Shown here in pieces: positions 2,294 to 53,544 of a stretch of 64,000 nucleotides of DNA. The notes beneath the pieces are model-generated. The model worked only from the letters and a program-made list of their open reading frames with translations. It did not search any database and was not told the origin of the DNA. Where the stretch lies: the NCBI GenBank assembly GCA_023269825.1, contig JAGDWI010000003.1:248001-312000 (forward strand), read 5' to 3'. Source of the stretch: Desulfurococcaceae archaeon. Its GTDB lineage: Archaea > Thermoproteota > Thermoprotei_A > Sulfolobales > Desulfurococcaceae. Within the stretch, counting starts at the first letter, position 1; the number at the start of each line of letters is the position of its first letter. The position numbers and the translations under genes are program-made.

Positions 2294-3586
2294 TTAAGAT
2301 AACATTAATAAAACTTGATCTAACACACTGTCAACGCTTGTTTTAACTTGTTCCCCTGTTTTCATGTTTTTAACTACAACACTGTTTTCTTTTAATTCCT
2401 TCTCACCAATTATTATAGCTAAATCTACGCCCACTTTGTTACAGTATTCTAGACCTCGCGACAATGAGCGGGGTTTATACACAAATCCCTGTACTTCAAT
2501 ATCCAGGTTTTTAGTTATTGTTCTCAGAATACTGTAACCAAGAGTTAACTGCGCGTTTCCCACTAGTATTAATGCTATTTTCCTCGTTGAAGGAGGTTTA
2601 TACTTACTCAACATAGATAAAGCTATCCTATCTATTCCCAACGCTAACCCTGTCGAGTACTCGTAGGGTCCACCATATATCGATGTTAAACCATCGTATC
2701 TACCTCCGCCTCCAATACTTGGGGACTCCTCGGCCCCTGAGAGTTTATACTCGAAGATCAAGCCTGTGTAATAAGCTAAACCTCTAACTAATCTGGGTTG
2801 ATATTTTGCCTCGAAACCTAGTTCTTTGAGTACCCCTATGAAGTTCTTTAATCTCTCGTGCTCAGATAATACCAAGTCGTATTGTTCTCCGAGGAGGTTT
2901 TTATAGTCGTTAACGATTTCCTCAACCTTGCTTAGATCATTCAAGGATATAAGTTCTTTGAATAACTCGACTTTATCTCCTACTACCTCCTCGAGTTTAA
3001 TCAACGCATCATCTATTTTACCCTTATCTATAAGGTGCAGTATGTAATCCTGCTTCTCCTCATTAACCCCTAGTTTACTCATAAAAACTCTATATGTTGC
3101 AACGTTTCCAACCTCGTATACGTGTTTTACTTGTATTCTATTTAGGAACTCGCTCGCCGTAAATGCTACGAGAATATCTGCATTGACGTCTGGGTCACCA
3201 ATGATCTCTAGGCCTCCTTGCCAGAACTCCCTGTACCTAGCGTACTGCGGCTCCTCGTACCTGAAACACTGCGCTGTATAATATAACCTAATGGGCTTAG
3301 GTCTCCCCCTCATTGATTTAAGATACGCTCTCACAACGCTTGCAGTTACTTCGGGTCTAAGAGCTAGTAAGCGACCGCTTTTATCTTCAAATACATACAT
3401 GGATCGCTTTATTTCCTCACCGCTTTTCGCTTCGAAGAGAGAGAAATATTCAACAGTTGGTGTTATTATTGGTTCAAAACCATGTCTTCTAGCAGTATCC
3501 CTGAACTCTGAGAACAAGTACTCGTAGAGCTCTGCCTCTGACTCCAATAAATCACGCATACCGCGAGGCGGGTTGTACTCGCTCAT
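2294..3586 (-). CDS. hisS: Histidyl-tRNA synthetase
   Basis: Class II synthetase that charges tRNA-His. Visible elements are the N-terminal PPRGMRD start, class II motif 2 (FRYEEPQYARYREFWQ), the histidine-binding LVRGLAYYTGLIFEY motif, the GGGGRYDGL loop, motif 3 (GLALGIDRI) and a C-terminal anticodon-binding domain. Length (about 430) is normal. An ATG (MSEYNPPRG...) fits the family N terminus better than a TTG three codons upstream at 3595. The gene start overlaps the end of the EndA-like gene by about 35 nt, so the two are probably in one minus-strand operon with translational coupling. Confidence 0.96.
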   Translation of the reverse strand: MSEYNPPRGMRDLLESEAELYEYLFSEFRDTARRHGFEPIITPTVEYFSLFEAKSGEEIKRSMYVFEDKSGRLLALRPEVTASVVRAYLKSMRGRPKPIRLYYTAQCFRYEEPQYARYREFWQGGLEIIGDPDVNADILVAFTASEFLNRIQVKHVYEVGNVATYRVFMSKLGVNEEKQDYILHLIDKGKIDDALIKLEEVVGDKVELFKELISLNDLSKVEEIVNDYKNLLGEQYDLVLSEHERLKNFIGVLKELGFEAKYQPRLVRGLAYYTGLIFEYKLSGAEESPSIGGGGRYDGLTSIYGGPYEYSTGLALGIDRIALSMLSKYKPPSTRKIALILVGNAQLTLGYSILRTITKNLDIEVQGFVYKPRSLSRGLEYCNKVGVDLAIIIGEKELKENSVVVKNMKTGEQVKTSVDSVLDQVLLMLS

Positions 3587-39577: not shown

Positions 39578-39696
39578 ACCCCCGGTTCACAACATGTTTT
39601 CATGTATATGTTCAATCACTGGTTACGAGTTCCTCCTATAGTTTCCCTAGAACTTAGACTTTATAAGATACGTTTTCTAGAGTTTAATAGTGAAAA

Positions 39697-39782
39697 GCCG
39701 GGGTGGCCGAGCGGTCTAAGGCGGCGGGCTGCAGGGCTAGCTGAAACCCGCTTTACCCGGGGTTCGAATCCCCGCCCCGGCT
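39697..39782 (+). tRNA. tRNA-Cys (GCA) with intron
   Basis: Acceptor GCCGGGG/CCCCGGC, anticodon stem GCGGG/CCCGC, T arm CGGGG-TTCGAAT-CCCCG, and discriminator T, which is a Cys identity element. The loop CTGCAG is followed by about 11 nt and then A38, a minimal 37/38 intron. The Ser/Leu-like D-arm sequence was considered, but there is no long variable arm. Confidence 0.92.
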
Positions 39783-39804
39783 TTCCATTTTACTTTCAAT
39801 AAAA

Positions 39805-43594: not shown

Positions 43595-43690
43595 GGGCCC
43601 GTCGCCTAGCCAGGATAGGGCGCCGGCCTCCTAAGCGCCGGTGGGTTCGTGGAAAGCCGGAGGCCCCGGGTTCAAATCCCGGCGGGCCCG
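43595..43690 (+). tRNA. tRNA-Arg (CCT) with intron
   Basis: Acceptor GGGCCCG/CGGGCCC, anticodon stem CCGGC/GCCGG, T arm CCGGG-TTCAAAT-CCCGG, discriminator G. The loop CTCCTA is followed by a 21-nt intron and then A38; the anticodon is CCT. Its intron end and 3' half (GTGGAAAGCC...GGCGGGCCC) resemble the 3' half of the chimeric relic at 49488. Confidence 0.93.
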
Positions 43691-48371: not shown

Positions 48372-48746
48372 TTGATATACCTCAGTGAAGACATTCTATC
48401 GTTAAGTAGGTTAATCGCTGTACTTATATTAATACTAGCGTTCATTTATGCTTTGTTTGAAACCAGGAGAACCCCTAGATTAATTATATCTATTCTCCTG
48501 GTACTGATTACTTTAATGCACTACATTATATTACTACATGTCTCAAGCTACGTGGAGATCTATTTTTACCCCTTAGTGATAGTTGAGTCAACGAGCAATG
48601 GCTCAGTATTCTACGTGGATTTTGGTCAATTATCAGTGATCCTGCTTATTGCTCTTTGGCGTGATAAAGCAAAACTATTAATCAATAAATTCAGAAGAGG
48701 TTGCAGAATTGAAGGTGAACACGGTGGAAGTACTGAGGGATCTTGA
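48372..48746 (+). CDS. Small membrane protein with three predicted helices
   Basis: A 124-residue protein with hydrophobic segments at about 12-30 (LIAVLILILAFIYALF), 36-55 (LIISILLVLITLMHYIILL) and 82-98 (LSVILLIALW), then a basic tail rich in Gly and Ser. The start is a TTG with GAGGTG about 10 nt upstream. No family is recognised. It overlaps the sfsA start by about 38 nt, so the genes are in one transcript. Confidence 0.55.
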   Translation: MIYLSEDILSLSRLIAVLILILAFIYALFETRRTPRLIISILLVLITLMHYIILLHVSSYVEIYFYPLVIVESTSNGSVFYVDFGQLSVILLIALWRDKAKLLINKFRRGCRIEGEHGGSTEGS

Positions 48747-49455
48747 ATTACTTGAATGCACTATTATTGAGAGAACGAGTTTACTTACTGTTAAAGTGGA
48801 TTTTAATGGTGTTCAGGAAGTAGTTTACATCAATAACACTGGTAGATTGAAGGAAATCCTAGTTAGAGGTAAGAAGTGCTACTGTACTAAAACCCGTGGA
48901 GGTAAACTAAGGTATAAGTTGATAGGAGTCGAAGATGAACACTACGCTTCACTCATAGATACACATTTACAGGAAGAAGCATTTATCACTGCGCATAAAC
49001 TTGGCTACATTGACTGGTTGAGAGATTATAGTTTAATCAAAAGAAATGTGAAGGTTTCATCGGAAACTATAGACTTCTTGTTTACTAGTATGAGAGGAGT
49101 TACATTAGTTGAAATAAAAAGCGCAGTCATGAAGCTCCCTGGAAATTACGCTGGATACCCGGATGCTCCAACTCCTAGAGGAGCAAGGCAGATCAGGGCC
49201 CTCGCTGTTCACGCTTCTAAGGGAGGCGAATCAATAGTAGTTTTTATCGCTGGAATTCCTCTGGCTAAAGGTTTTCAACTATACTGTTGCGTGGATAAGG
49301 AAATAGAGAAAGCAGTGAAACATGCGGTGAGAATGGGAGTATTATTTAAAGCACTAAACTTTTACCTAGATCCAATTACAAAGAGTGTGGTATTGGGGGA
49401 GACGAATTTACCGGTTAAATTAGAATGCTATAACACATGTACAAATAATGCTTGA
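48709..49455 (+). CDS. sfsA: SfsA homologue (sugar fermentation stimulation protein family)
   Basis: An N-terminal OB-like domain (VYINNTGRLKEILV) and a C-terminal restriction-endonuclease-like domain with the family core VEIKSAVMK...YPDAPTPRGARQIRAL (VEIKS is the PD-ExK-like motif). The length (248) is normal, and the start codon is TTG. DNA binding or a nuclease role is assumed for the family; the biological role is unclear even in bacteria. Confidence 0.88.
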   Translation: MKVNTVEVLRDLELLECTIIERTSLLTVKVDFNGVQEVVYINNTGRLKEILVRGKKCYCTKTRGGKLRYKLIGVEDEHYASLIDTHLQEEAFITAHKLGYIDWLRDYSLIKRNVKVSSETIDFLFTSMRGVTLVEIKSAVMKLPGNYAGYPDAPTPRGARQIRALAVHASKGGESIVVFIAGIPLAKGFQLYCCVDKEIEKAVKHAVRMGVLFKALNFYLDPITKSVVLGETNLPVKLECYNTCTNNA

Positions 49456-49487
49456 AAACCCTATATATTCCTTGGATATTATGGACA

Positions 49488-49514
49488 CCGCCGTAGTATA
49501 GCCCGGTCAAGTAT
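49488..49514 (+). repeat. Left copy of a 27-bp direct repeat flanking the MutS-like island
   Basis: Identical to 53446-53472. It covers the 5' acceptor strand and D arm of tRNA-Glu. The pair encloses about 3.9 kb containing the two MutS-like genes and a gene fragment, as attachment sites would. Confidence 0.8.
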
Positions 49515-49574
49515 TCCCGCCCCATGTCCTCCGTGGAAAGCCAGAGGCCCGGGGTTCGAATTCCAGCGGGCCCG
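49488..49574 (+). pseudogene. Chimeric tRNA relic: tRNA-Glu 5' half joined to tRNA-Arg-like 3' half
   Basis: The first 27 nt (49488-49514) are identical to positions 2-28 of the intact tRNA-Glu (53446-53472), and the DNA just before is also similar, promoter included. From about 49530 the sequence (GTGGAAAGCC, GAGGCCC, GGGGTTCGAATTCC, GCGGGCCCG) follows the intron end and 3' half of tRNA-Arg at 43595. The two acceptor halves (CCGCCG and CGGGCCC) cannot pair, so it cannot fold as one tRNA. A split-tRNA gene pair is unlikely, since both parents exist intact in the window. Confidence 0.8.
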
Positions 49575-49912
49575 TGTCCCTGTAAACCCTTGAGTAAATC
49601 ACACTAGGTTGTTTTATATGCTCGCATGTCCACAGAGGAAACGAATTGAGTCCTCTCGCATTCGACCATGTGTCCCAGGTAGCAGGTCAATACTTTATAT
49701 TAGTGAGCGCTGAGTATTAACGTTAATCGCTAGAAATAGTGTTTGCATTCCGTCTACTAAACTGCCTGGGAAAATATGATTAAGCACATAGTGCTCCTGA
49801 TATCAGGCAATGAAGAATCATTATGTCTACAAATGAGGTATGAGCTACTGCGTCTATCTCACTGCTTGCATTGATTATATCGTAGTGCGGTTGGAGGATG
49901 CTGCGGGTTGTT
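49575..49912. other. Non-coding stretch at the left edge of the island
   Basis: No gene is supported. It contains a perfect 12-bp palindrome CCTGATATCAGG (49796-49807) and a minus-strand open stretch of about 47 codons without a start, out of frame with the MutS-like gene that ends at 49913. I found no integrase or transposase remnant by eye. Confidence 0.45.
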
Positions 49913-51379
49913 TTATCGGTTTCCAGTCATTTTTCTCCATAGTTCTAGCGCGTAGCCTGGTTGTATGGATCCTTTAACTAATCTATATGTTCTTGTTCCA
50001 TCGCTCAGTCTCTCAGGCACTAGTAGCACTGCTTTTTTGCTGTTCTTTGGTATAAACCTGTAGAGGAAGTCTTGGAGGAAAGTGACGTAGAACACGTTGA
50101 TACCTGAGTCAAGAAGTGCTGAGACAACGTTTTCAGCTACTACTGAGGCCTCAACATGGTTTGTCGAGACAAAACTCTCATCCATCAGCACATAGTCTCC
50201 CCTCTTGAGGCATTCCACTAGTCTTCTAAATCTTTTCACCTCCTCCTCGAACTTTCCATAAGAGAACGTTCTCTCCTCCTCTTTCAGGAAATGTGTGAAC
50301 ACTGCACCAGTTGATGGAATAATAAACCTCTCCGCGGGCACAAATAACCCCGCTCTAGCTAACAGTATTGCTTGGCCAACACTCTTCAAGAAAGTTGTCT
50401 TTCCACCTTTATTGACACCAGTGATTATAACCGTGAAAGAGTCATCAACATCTAGGTTGAGGCTACTTGGAACAGGCTTCTTTGTAGACGATATCGCCAT
50501 GGATAACGGGTAGAGATTTTCGAAGAATAGCTTCCTTGAATTCACCTCGGGGTACGTCCCGGGAATTCCAAGCCCATTGAGGAAGTCACTAAGGTTTATA
50601 GCGCCAACAAAGAACGATAATTGCCTCGCTAAGTCCTCGAAGAAATCCATTAGCTTATCAAAAGCATTTAGAAGAGTTGTTGCTATTCTTGATAATACCC
50701 ATTTCTCCATATCATCTAAGATCATGGAGCCTGCTTCATCCCTTGGATCAAGCCTATAAGTATACTTCTTCTCCAAGGGCAACAATCTACTTATCAAAGA
50801 GCCCTCGTTTTTAGGTAGCAGGAGAATCGGGTTAGCCAAGTTATTCAAGGGCCCTATCTCAACGGCGAAGTCTACGCCGTTTCCAAACCTTAGTATCTCA
50901 CTAATCTCTCTAGCTCTAGCTATAAATCTCCTATCGATGTTTAATTTAAGGGACTCCGCCAAGCTCTTGAAAGCTCTTGATGTAAACCTCGTGTTGTTTA
51001 CAACGTCTAGTAGTTTCTCTAGGTAGTTAGTGAGGATCCTGATGCCATTTGAGGCCTCGTAGACCACGAGCTTTGGATCATCTAGTCTAAATATGAATAC
51101 CTCTCTATTCGCTGTTTCATAGCCCTCTCTAGTTATTTGATACATTCTCAACACTGCATCTTTGTTCTCGAGGGCATCCATAACAGCTTCCTGTCTATAC
51201 CTGACATCTTCTACAGATGACTCCCTAGACAGTAATACGTCAAACCACGTCTTGGCAACGAGTTCATCTCCCCTAGATGCAACATTAACTATTTTATCGA
51301 GCTCTAGGTCTACCCTCACATCCTCCGCGATACCTATCTTCTGCTGAGAGCCGAGTTTTAACAAGTCGTACTCTATCAT
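49913..51379 (-). CDS. MutS-like ATPase, second gene of a pair
   Basis: A 488-residue protein with MutS core (domain III) features at 28-75 (DKIVNVASRGDELVAKTWFD, VEDVRYRQEAVMDAL), a helical lever/clamp region, then the MutS ATPase: Walker A GVNKGGKTTF (321-330), DYVLMDESFVSTN with Walker B D400-E401, and an aromatic-rich end. The N-terminal mismatch-recognition domain is absent, so it is not canonical MutS1. Codons are GC-richer than in neighbours. It overlaps the partner gene by 4 nt (ATGA). Probably it heterodimerises with its partner on DNA. Crenarchaea usually lack MutS/MutL repair. Confidence 0.85.
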   Translation of the reverse strand: MIEYDLLKLGSQQKIGIAEDVRVDLELDKIVNVASRGDELVAKTWFDVLLSRESSVEDVRYRQEAVMDALENKDAVLRMYQITREGYETANREVFIFRLDDPKLVVYEASNGIRILTNYLEKLLDVVNNTRFTSRAFKSLAESLKLNIDRRFIARAREISEILRFGNGVDFAVEIGPLNNLANPILLLPKNEGSLISRLLPLEKKYTYRLDPRDEAGSMILDDMEKWVLSRIATTLLNAFDKLMDFFEDLARQLSFFVGAINLSDFLNGLGIPGTYPEVNSRKLFFENLYPLSMAISSTKKPVPSSLNLDVDDSFTVIITGVNKGGKTTFLKSVGQAILLARAGLFVPAERFIIPSTGAVFTHFLKEEERTFSYGKFEEEVKRFRRLVECLKRGDYVLMDESFVSTNHVEASVVAENVVSALLDSGINVFYVTFLQDFLYRFIPKNSKKAVLLVPERLSDGTRTYRLVKGSIQPGYALELWRKMTGNR

Positions 51380-52806
51380 CTCAACATCTCCATCAAATCC
51401 CTGTATAAGAGCCCATGCTTAGATGCTATTCTGACAGCCATGTACTCTGATGGTGGTGAACCTGGAAGTATCTTATAAGAGGGCTTTAAGGGGTCCTCTG
51501 GGAATGGCTGTGCAAACAGGCTTATAACGAAGTCTAGTGAGGCTACGCCGGGTATAAAAGTCACGAATATACAGTAGCTCCTCCTCTTGTTAAGCTCATC
51601 GAGGAACATCTTCGCTAATTGATATCCCTCATCAGAAGTTGTAGTGGAGAAGAGCTCGTTGGCTATGATGAGTGTTGAGCTATCGGCTCTACGCATTATA
51701 TTCACGGTCCTTATAATGTCCTGCTCTAGCCTACTCAGACTCTCCCTTGGATCCTCTCTAGCCGGGTAGGCAGTTATTATTGCCGTGAAAAACGGTATCT
51801 CTGCACTCTCAGCTGGAACAGGTACTCCTAGTTTCGCCAAGTACACTAGTTGACCAAAAGATGTAGCGAAAGTAGTTTTCCCACCACTATTCATCCCTGT
51901 AACAACGAATATCCTTTTCTCGCCATCTGTAGATATATCGTTTGATACTGCCCCGCCCTTCTCAGCTAGGAGAATATTGTAGAAGCCCCTGACATTTATT
52001 CTCCCATCACTCGTAAACCTCGGTATAGTAAAGCCATACCCCTTATTCATCAAGCTCTTCATGAAGTCTATGTATGACAAGTAGAACCTGACCTCACTGG
52101 CAAAAGCCGCCACGCCATCATCAACTATCCTCGGGAATTCATCATAGAACTTCTTCATAGCTTCATACTCGCTATTAAAGAACTTGAAAGCTCCTTCAAG
52201 AATGGCCGCGTGGATATGGCTCATGCTACTACCAGTGGGGATATATCTAACCTTTTTTATTTCGCCACCTTTAAACCCGGCAAATAACTCCCCGATAATA
52301 CTTTCCATGTCTTCGCCTCCATCAAACCTCCAAACAATTAACCTGTCACCAGCTATCCTAACTCTAACCCTAATCCTATCTCGCGCTTTCTTAGCCTCCA
52401 CGGCCTTCTCCTTCATGGCTTTAAAGTACTCGCTCCTGATAATGCCCTCAACATAGTTCAGGAAGCCCCTGAGGCCCTCGGATTTCACACCCAGCGATGA
52501 TATCTCGCTGTGAAATCTCTCTAGTGCATATATGTAGGTTAAAGCAGCATCCAAGTGGAGGCCTAGCTTATGGGGCTCATAAGCCTCTTTCTCCATATCC
52601 AAGTAGTTGAGGGCTTCTCTCACTCTTCCAATAAACCTTTCAACAGCCATGTAGACGTCTTCCCGCATTAAGTCAGAGAAGACGTTGAGTCTATAAACCA
52701 CTGCATCAACGCTGCCGAGTGGCTCCAGGAACAGGCTCCACAGGAACTCATCTCTCTCCCTGCCAAGAATCACGCTAACAAGCTCTCGAATCCTCAGATC
52801 GCTCAA
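51376..52806 (-). CDS. MutS-like ATPase with altered Walker B, first gene of a pair
   Basis: A 476-residue protein of the same layout. Walker A is GMNSGGKTTF (304-313). The Walker B region reads TLIIANELFSTTTSDEG, so the magnesium-binding Asp of the usual DE pair is Asn (N383) while Glu (E384) stays. Residues 145-160 are basic (RIRVRVRIAGDRLIVWR). No mismatch-recognition domain is seen. It is translated first and coupled to the second ATPase, an arrangement like the asymmetric MSH heterodimers of eukaryotes. A 7-bp inverted repeat and a TTTTTAAA run lie upstream. Confidence 0.83.
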   Translation of the reverse strand: MSDLRIRELVSVILGRERDEFLWSLFLEPLGSVDAVVYRLNVFSDLMREDVYMAVERFIGRVREALNYLDMEKEAYEPHKLGLHLDAALTYIYALERFHSEISSLGVKSEGLRGFLNYVEGIIRSEYFKAMKEKAVEAKKARDRIRVRVRIAGDRLIVWRFDGGEDMESIIGELFAGFKGGEIKKVRYIPTGSSMSHIHAAILEGAFKFFNSEYEAMKKFYDEFPRIVDDGVAAFASEVRFYLSYIDFMKSLMNKGYGFTIPRFTSDGRINVRGFYNILLAEKGGAVSNDISTDGEKRIFVVTGMNSGGKTTFATSFGQLVYLAKLGVPVPAESAEIPFFTAIITAYPAREDPRESLSRLEQDIIRTVNIMRRADSSTLIIANELFSTTTSDEGYQLAKMFLDELNKRRSYCIFVTFIPGVASLDFVISLFAQPFPEDPLKPSYKILPGSPPSEYMAVRIASKHGLLYRDLMEMLR

Positions 52807-52869
52807 TACCTGCTCTTCTACTCTAACACCTCTAGAACCAAGAATACTCGTATAACTCGTTTACCACAC

Positions 52870-52901
52870 CCCTAGTCCTCACTGCGTTGCCAACACTAGG
52901 G
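52870..52901. repeat. Inverted repeat upstream of the MutS-like pair
   Basis: CCCTAGT (52870-52876) and ACTAGGG (52895-52901) are exact inverted copies separated by 18 nt. They lie between the predicted TATA-like TTTTTAAA and the first start codon of the minus-strand operon. This could be a repressor operator or a leader hairpin. Confidence 0.4.
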
Positions 52902-52972
52902 AACTACATTGATTAGTGGTTTAAAAATAGTGCATTATCCCAATGAAAAGAGCGTATTTCACATCGTTAAAC

Positions 52973-53218
52973 CTAGGATTGAGCATACACTGCTATGAAT
53001 AAAATTATTACTAATAACAGAATCTCATACCATTGAAGTAATGGTATACCTCCTTTAGCAACTCCGTGCTCATACAGGTGATCTCTCTGAGCATGAACCT
53101 TTTTCTCCCTTAACTTGCTTGGTAGTTCCTCCCCCGTCAACTCAACGACTCTCCTGTCTCCGGGGTAAAGGTATATCTTTGGAACCGCTACTCCCCAACT
53201 TATTTTCCTTCTAATAGG
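52973..53218 (-). pseudogene. Gene fragment: C-terminal end of a membrane-anchored protein
   Basis: The minus-strand frame is open for 81 codons from a TGA to a TAG but has no ATG. It encodes SWGVAVPKIYLYPGDRRVVE, a charged stretch (ELPSKLREKKVHAQRDHLYE) and one hydrophobic helix (YEILLLVIILFIAVYA) at the end. It looks like the tail of a larger surface or membrane protein cut off at its 5' side. An intact small protein starting at an internal TTG is the alternative. No family is recognised. Confidence 0.5.
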
Positions 53219-53444
53219 TCAACGGGACAAAAACAAGGTAGATCACCATGTATGCCCGTTGTAGTAGATGCTTTGAAAGCGAGGGCTCTCCTTGAGGCGT
53301 TGTCTTTAAGTCGATCCGCACTTCCTCGAGCCATTATTGAATTGAGTTGTTCTCAGAGATGTTGATTTAAACCCGGATCTAGAGTGTGAAATGGCCTGGA
53401 CATAAATGCTTAAAAAACCCGTAATCTACTTAAACATAATAGAC

Positions 53445-53544
53445 GCCGCCGTAGTATAGCCCGGTCAAGTATGCGGGCCTCTCGAGCCCCGTTTAAGGGA
53501 GGTGTGGACAGCCCGTGACCCGGGTTCAAATCCCGGCGGCGGCA
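53445..53544 (+). tRNA. tRNA-Glu (CTC) with 25-nt intron
   Basis: Acceptor GCCGCCG/CGGCGGC, anticodon stem CGGGC/GCCCG, T arm CCGGG-TTCAAAT-CCCGG, discriminator A. The loop CTCTCG is followed by an intron at about 53485-53509 and then A38, the canonical 37/38 site; the intron GGGAGG can pair with the anticodon region. Its 5' half is duplicated at 49488. Confidence 0.94.
53446..53472 (+). repeat. Right copy of the 27-bp direct repeat, inside tRNA-Glu
   Basis: Exact match to 49488-49514. If the island entered by recombination at the 5' half of tRNA-Glu, this copy rebuilt the gene and the left copy is the displaced original. Confidence 0.8.

What the first reader, a model, noticed from the sequence alone, without database searches (positions are those of the whole stretch)
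49488..53544. MutS-like ATPase pair enclosed by tRNA-Glu direct repeats: a probable integrated island
Two coupled MutS-like genes of GC-richer codon use lie between an intact intron-bearing tRNA-Glu and a 27-bp exact copy of its 5' half, 3.9 kb away. Inside are a truncated gene fragment and non-coding debris. Repeats of tRNA sequence at both ends are the hallmark of site-specific integration, here unusually at the 5' rather than the 3' half. Neither protein has the mismatch-recognition domain, and crenarchaea mostly lack MutS/MutL, so the pair may do something other than mismatch repair, for example recombination control or defence. No integrase was seen, so the island would be fixed.
Basis: partly seen in the sequence, partly recalled or inferred. 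Interest (0 to 1): 0.85.

Follow-up and report, generated by a model that had tools for sequence, protein, structure and literature searches.

The report
Fluoride-linked gene pair at tRNA gene
A foreign piece of DNA inserted at a tRNA gene of a heat-loving archaeon carries two partner genes that look like DNA-mismatch-repair proteins but belong to a travelling two-gene module that, in many relatives, is placed under a fluoride-sensing switch.

Summary
The insertion is real: all seven congeners have one tRNA-Glu here and no MutS-like genes beside it. The left "repeat" is not a simple att copy. It is a dead chimera: native promoter and 27 bp of tRNA-Glu 5' half, fused to the 3' half of a tRNA-Arg(CCT/TCT); an intact tRNA-Arg(CCT) lies 10 kb upstream on the same strand. 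The right edge carries the decayed tail of a second sfsA plus a tRNA-Glu promoter 39/39 identical to G004/G006, whose neighbouring genes are only 62-74% identical. So it is imported DNA joined at tRNA genes, best explained by unequal tRNA-Arg x tRNA-Glu exchange. The two genes (B then A) are an inseparable, co-evolving pair (16 of 229 class genomes; bacterial plasmids) without mismatch-recognition domain. In seven related loci a fluoride riboswitch lies directly upstream of B, and plasmid copies sit among CrcB, enolase and CLC genes: a fluoride-responsive module, not defence or recombination control. The window copy has lost the riboswitch and its old start codon, so its present role is less certain. 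A crcB-motif/"mutS" link was published in 2010; the paired, mobile, tRNA-associated form is the new part.

The parts
43595..43690 (+). intact tRNA-Arg(CCT) with intron; same strand, 9.9 kb upstream of tRNA-Glu; the type of tRNA fused into the left chimera
   Evidence: Rfam tRNA 51.2 bits; ARAGORN's tRNA-Pyl label is an intron artefact
48709..49455 (+). native sfsA gene (left flank)
   Evidence: Pfam SfsA 84 bits; same place in G003-G007
49447..49486 (+). native tRNA-Glu promoter region, diverged from the right copy
   Evidence: 79% over 68 bp to the right copy including the tRNA part
49488..49514 (+). 27-bp exact copy of the tRNA-Glu 5' half; left end of the island
49532..49574 (+). decayed tRNA-Arg 3' half with 11 nt of its intron end, following the Glu 5' half
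   Evidence: 38/43 to own tRNA-Arg(CCT) and (TCT); best outside hit 89% in another genus, G119
49913..51379 (-). gene A: MutS-like ATPase, 488 aa, Walker B DE
   Evidence: Pfam MutS_V 1.4e-13; model pLDDT 81, MutS/MutS2 core fold; dN 0.12, dS 1.0 to G004
51376..52806 (-). gene B: MutS-like ATPase, 476 aa, Walker B NE in place of DE; overlaps A by 4 bp
   Evidence: Pfam MutS_V 1.2e-15; NE in 23 of 23 homologues
52807..52860 (-). original N-terminal codons of gene B still readable, but the start codon is now ACG after a stop; no fluoride riboswitch upstream
   Evidence: compare TTG start in G004
52976..53197 (-). remnant of the C-terminal part of a small membrane protein gene
   Evidence: one homologue in G014 (46%, 7e-8)
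53296..53404 (+). decayed 3' tail of a second, G004/G006-type sfsA
   Evidence: continuous with promoter and tRNA, 85% over 253 bp to G004 and G006
53405..53444 (+). imported tRNA-Glu promoter, 39/39 identical to G004 and G006
53445..53544 (+). intact tRNA-Glu(CTC) with intron; right crossover placed within its 5' half; intron most like the genome's own tRNA-Glu(TTC)

Best explanation
Origin: DNA from a G004/G006-like relative, running from a tRNA-Arg 3' half through the MutS-like pair to an sfsA tail, promoter and tRNA-Glu 5' half, was joined into this genome at tRNA-Glu. The left join is between native tRNA-Glu 5' half and donor tRNA-Arg 3' half; the right join lies inside the 27-bp tRNA-Glu 5' half. 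Because tRNA-Arg(CCT) and tRNA-Glu(CTC) are neighbours on one strand in the genus, unequal exchange between them (linear DNA, or a circle closed at the two tRNAs) gives exactly this structure; redundant genes between were then lost. Function: genes B and A encode the two subunits of a probable heterodimeric MutS-fold ATPase that works outside mismatch repair. The family is a horizontally moving, fluoride-responsive module that helps cells tolerate fluoride, I think as an ATP-driven clamp or remodeller relieving a fluoride-caused block. Shown: insertion, chimera, imported promoter, pair integrity, riboswitch in front of relatives, plasmid fluoride clusters. Inferred: the exchange route, the heterodimer, the substrate, and that this riboswitch-less copy still serves fluoride tolerance.
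For: Empty sites in all congeners. Chimera. Neighbouring genes (helicase, TM gene, sfsA, DCD) match G004/G006 at 62-74% while the promoter is 39/39 identical and sfsA tail plus promoter 80-82%. tRNA-Arg lies about 5 kb from tRNA-Glu on the same strand in G004 and G006. The pair's nearest relative is in another family (window+L085 support 1.00 against same-genus G004), and L085 also has a tRNA-Arg 3'-half repeat 34 bp from gene A's stop. tRNA 3' ends also face gene A's stop in G035, G075, G100, G123: 5 of 18 loci other than the window, p=0.038 each, P about 5e-4. All genomes with ~500-aa copies have two adjacent ones, apart from G035, which is cut by its contig end; A and B distances correlate at 0.986, 0/2000 permutations. 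Fluoride riboswitch directly upstream of B in G046, G047, G073, G122, two Thaumarchaeota MAGs and Desulfosporosinus, 37-63 bits vs cut-off 34, and at the head of the antiporter-usp-B-A cluster in Klebsiella and Citrobacter plasmids with CrcB, enolase, DHHA2 protein and CLC nearby. crcB motif in front of mutS genes reported in PMC2864571; a related crcB/eno/ppaC operon gives fluoride resistance in Enterobacter (PMC5533749).
Against: The window copy has no fluoride riboswitch, the genome has none, and no CrcB or CLC exporter was found. Gene B lost its ancestral start codon. More than half of the archaeal loci also lack the riboswitch. No donor locus with tRNA-Arg, the pair and sfsA in one piece was found; in G004 the pair lies elsewhere. 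No experiment links these proteins to fluoride tolerance.
Confidence: 0.68

Rival explanations
1. Integrase-driven island: an integrative element whose att core is the 27-bp tRNA-Glu 5' half, carrying a promoter-bearing flank so that tRNA-Glu stays expressed; the integrase was later lost.
For: 27-bp exact core, imported promoter upstream of the intact tRNA, empty sites in relatives; related pairs sit at tRNA 3' ends with 45-49-bp repeats typical of tRNA-targeted elements.
Against: No integrase or fragment recognised; the left end is fused to a tRNA-Arg half and the right flank holds a chromosomal sfsA tail, which an att core alone does not explain.
Confidence: 0.25
2. Internal tandem duplication of the sfsA-tRNA-Glu segment in this lineage, into which the MutS-like pair later moved.
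For: Two tRNA-Glu 5' halves and two sfsA ends in the same order.
Against: The right promoter and sfsA tail resemble G004/G006, not the native left copy; left and right show no detectable sfsA similarity.
Confidence: 0.05
3. The pair acts on DNA (repair, anti-recombination or defence), and the fluoride control seen in relatives only reflects a DNA-damaging stress.
For: MutS-fold core, closest solved structures are MutS and MutS2; HEPN-MNT and PIN genes near some copies; PMC2864571 proposed a DNA-damage stress for the crcB motif before its ligand was known.
Against: No mismatch-recognition domain; Walker B Asp replaced in all B proteins; only weak PADLOC hits; copies lie among fluoride exporters and fluoride-target enzymes.
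Confidence: 0.3
4. The pair works as an enzyme reactivase, as KamC is named for lysine 5,6-aminomutase, freeing fluoride-blocked enzymes by ATP-driven remodelling.
For: KamC is the best NCBIfam profile for all A proteins tested (66-84 bits); plasmid copies lie among fluoride-target enzymes.
Against: All KamC scores are far below its cut-off of 300 bits; similarity is mainly the shared ATPase domain; no substrate known.
Confidence: 0.25

Closest known systems
Fluoride (crcB) riboswitch-associated 'mutS' genes (Weinberg et al. 2010, PMC2864571)
   Same: Tandem MutS-like genes homologous to the window pair lie directly behind this riboswitch in archaea and bacteria
   Different: The window copy has no riboswitch and lies at a tRNA-Glu/tRNA-Arg junction; the published note speaks only of mutS
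Fluoride-resistance gene clusters of enterobacterial plasmids and of Enterobacter cloacae FRM GI3 (PMC5533749)
   Same: Plasmid clusters contain the same B-A pair beside antiporter, USP, CrcB, eno and a DHHA2 protein
   Different: The six-gene operon tested in E. cloacae did not include the pair; the archaeal island has none of the other genes
MutS2 (core region, PDB 7vuf, 9kce)
   Same: MutS core and ATPase fold without mismatch-recognition domain
   Different: About 480 aa, no Smr domain found by Pfam, always two unlike subunits, Walker B NE in B
KamC, lysine 5,6-aminomutase reactivase ATPase (NF052383)
   Same: Similar length (508-position profile); best NCBIfam profile for gene A
   Different: 66 bits against a cut-off of 300
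tRNA-targeted integrative elements of crenarchaea
   Same: Foreign DNA at a tRNA with tRNA fragments at the ends
   Different: No integrase, 5' half of tRNA-Glu involved, chimeric left end

Membership tests
Mismatch-repair MutS | Mismatch-recognition domain I | tested here: not met
   Pfam finds only MutS_V in both proteins at E<=0.1, apart from a sub-threshold AAA hit
Mismatch-repair MutS | MutS ATPase domain V with Walker A | tested here: met
Mismatch-repair MutS | Walker B DE in the ATPase | tested here: not met
   NE in all 23 B proteins; DE in A of the window clade, NE in many other A proteins
MutS2 | Smr nuclease domain and NCBIfam cut-off 400 bits | tested here: not met
   no Smr hit; 52 and 87 bits
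KamC | NCBIfam NF052383 cut-off 300 bits | tested here: not met
   66 and 79 bits
Fluoride-responsive MutS-like pair | Two adjacent, overlapping MutS-like genes in order B-A, full-length homology to riboswitch-bearing pairs | tested here: met
   about 60% identity to the G122 pair, which has the riboswitch
Fluoride-responsive MutS-like pair | Fluoride riboswitch upstream of B | tested here: not met
   none in the window or genome
Fluoride-responsive MutS-like pair | Induction by fluoride, effect on tolerance | not testable with these tools
   needs experiment
tRNA-targeted integrative element | Empty site with one tRNA in relatives | tested here: met
   G001-G007
tRNA-targeted integrative element | Direct repeat of tRNA 3' half as att site | tested here: not met
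   repeat is of the tRNA-Glu 5' half; the 3' part is from tRNA-Arg
tRNA-targeted integrative element | Integrase gene | tested here: not met
   the only intact genes inside are the two MutS-like ones; debris shows no long ORF

The most novel reading that the evidence does not exclude
The pair is a heterodimeric MutS-fold machine that does not act on mismatched DNA at all but uses ATP to free fluoride-blocked enzymes or ribosomes: a new kind of fluoride tolerance that spreads between archaea and bacteria, in archaea by insertion at tRNA genes.
Probability: 0.2. Interest if true: 0.85.

Novelty: new variant of a known kind. Interest (0 to 1): 0.55.

Why it matters
In the 2010 paper that described the crcB motif, 'mutS' was listed among the genes behind it and read as DNA repair. 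The copies met here are an inseparable two-gene module, without a mismatch-recognition domain, shared by hyperthermophilic archaea and enterobacterial plasmids; that makes their true role a testable question. The window also gives a clear fossil of DNA import joined through two different neighbouring tRNA genes, leaving a chimeric tRNA.

Tried and rejected
Split or trans-spliced tRNA: rejected because the left copy has position 1 mutated and a G-A mismatch plus a G-T pair in the T-stem, and intact tRNA-Glu and tRNA-Arg genes exist. Pure att duplication of one site: rejected, since the promoters are orthologous and the left end is chimeric. Defence system: only weak PADLOC ATPase hits. Viral carriage: no relative in viral contigs; phage hits are mostly partial MutS_V matches. 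Decayed fluoride riboswitch in the window: a covariance model built from 11 riboswitches finds nothing above noise. Association of the pair with presence or absence of CrcB: none of the pair-bearing genomes has CrcB, but numbers are too small. The model of gene B from three sequences was poor (pLDDT 45) and was not used. An apparent tRNA-Leu beside the pair in L094 was not confirmed by Rfam and was dropped. KamB/KamC literature was not found in the open library. A first tree run with iqtree2 failed; FastTree was used instead.

Full report
Setting. The window is bases 248001-312000 of contig 3 of a 1.5-Mb, three-contig genome. Named relatives carrying the closest pairs are Desulfurococcales and Desulfurococcaceae MAGs. 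Seven other genomes of the same genus are held (G001-G007).

Observation. The intact tRNA-Glu(CTC) with intron is at 53445-53544. Its first half, minus the first base, is repeated exactly at 49488-49514. After that the left copy does not continue as tRNA-Glu: 49532-49574 matches the intron end and 3' half of the genome's tRNA-Arg(CCT) and tRNA-Arg(TCT) at 38 of 43 positions, with a clearly lower score to any Glu tRNA. The left copy is thus a dead Glu/Arg chimera. ARAGORN calls the intact tRNA-Arg(CCT) at 43595 'Pyl' because of its intron.

Empty sites. In G003, G004, G005 and G006 the order is sfsA, tRNA-Glu, dCTP deaminase with nothing between. In G001 and G002 a small membrane gene takes the place of sfsA next to the tRNA. 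In G007 a PEP-carboxykinase-like gene lies between tRNA-Glu and the deaminase. None has MutS-like genes there. G004 has the pair on another contig, and G006 has an internally deleted remnant with a stop.

Source of the right edge. From 53296 to the end of the tRNA the window aligns without a break to G004 and G006 at 85%. This covers the last part of sfsA, the promoter and the tRNA. The promoter is 39/39 identical to both, while helicase, membrane gene, sfsA and deaminase are only 62-74% identical to them and no closer than to other congeners. The sfsA at the left edge is intact and native. The tRNA-Glu intron on the right resembles the genome's own tRNA-Glu(TTC) more than G004's (sequences, compared by eye). 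So the right crossover is most simply placed within the 27-bp 5' half: donor promoter upstream, native tRNA downstream.

How it was joined. In G000, G004 and G006 a tRNA-Arg and tRNA-Glu(CTC) are on the same strand; they are about 5 kb apart in the empty loci. A donor fragment running from tRNA-Arg to tRNA-Glu, recombining with native tRNA-Glu at both ends (Arg 3' half on the left, Glu 5' half on the right), produces every junction seen; a circle closed at the two tRNAs would do the same. The genes between Arg and sfsA, now redundant, would then have been deleted. This route is inferred. Site-specific integration into the 5' half remains a rival.

Why tRNA-Arg. Other copies of the pair have tRNA 3' ends facing the stop of gene A: L085 (decayed 45-bp tRNA-Arg(CCG) 3' half 34 bp away, intact gene 2.1 kb further), L100 (49-bp and 19-bp pieces of tRNA-Arg(GCG) and the intact gene), L101 (tRNA-Arg(TCT), 0.9 kb), L104 (tRNA-Val, about 90 bp), L095 (tRNA-Gly, 34 bp). 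Leaving out the window and counting orthologous places once, 5 of 18 archaeal loci have such a tRNA within 2.5 kb against an expected 0.7, P about 5e-4 (assuming 46 tRNA genes per 1.5 Mb). In the tree of the joined proteins the window copy is sister to L085, from another family, with support 1.00.

The proteins. Both match Pfam MutS_V only. NCBIfam profiles for MutS, MutS2 and KamC hit far below their cut-offs. The model of A is good (pLDDT 81, pTM 0.82) and resembles MutS and MutS2 cores (TM about 0.5, with large rmsd because domains are placed differently). In 23 pairs the Walker A lysine and the catalytic Glu are kept throughout, and B always has NE where MutS has DE. dN/dS of about 0.11 against G004 shows long-term purifying selection. 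In the class, 27 of 229 genomes have any MutS_V gene: 16 hold exactly two, adjacent, about 500 aa each; G035 holds one cut by its contig end; the other ten, one family, hold a single gene, mostly of 700-740 aa. A and B distances correlate at 0.986. No other neighbour is shared by all; an MFS transporter recurs next to A in several.

Function. Rfam finds a fluoride riboswitch just before gene B in seven loci: four genomes of three families of the window's class, two MAGs named Thaumarchaeota, and Desulfosporosinus. In Klebsiella and Citrobacter plasmids the riboswitch heads antiporter, universal stress protein, B, A, with a P-type ATPase beside them in both and, on the Citrobacter plasmid, CrcB, phosphoglycerate mutase, enolase, DHHA2 protein and a CLC channel. 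PMC2864571 already listed mutS among genes behind this motif, and PMC5533749 showed fluoride resistance by a related six-gene operon that lacks the pair. The family is therefore very probably fluoride-responsive. What the proteins act on is unknown; KamC similarity suggests enzyme reactivation, MutS2 similarity suggests DNA or ribosomes.

State of the window copy. No riboswitch, the ancestral start of B replaced by ACG after a stop (L085 shares the ACG), no CrcB or CLC in the genome. The reading frames of both genes are otherwise intact. Whether it still serves fluoride tolerance is open.

Noticed in passing
L030 (G006:C135) about 2843-3391: A congener holds a remnant of the pair: start of B joined to end of A with a stop, so the module is being lost there.
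   Followed up: partly
L047 1890-3812 (G007): A PEP-carboxykinase-like gene sits between tRNA-Glu and dCTP deaminase at the same place, so this tRNA may be a repeated insertion point.
   Followed up: no
L066, L070-L078: One family (f8) carries a single MutS_V gene, mostly of 700-740 aa, and most of those genomes also have CrcB; its nature was not studied.
   Followed up: no
L111 17105-18256: Two further fluoride riboswitches on opposite strands flank a PAP2 phosphatase gene on a Citrobacter plasmid, one ahead of the DHHA2-usp-eno genes and one ahead of a CLC channel gene.
   Followed up: no
window 39696-39783: ARAGORN reports a tRNA with a four-base anticodon (gcag); possibly an intron-bearing tRNA misread.
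   Followed up: no
L096 6765-6837: A second, reverse-strand fluoride riboswitch-like match (35 bits with the session's model) lies near the Desulfosporosinus pair.
   Followed up: no
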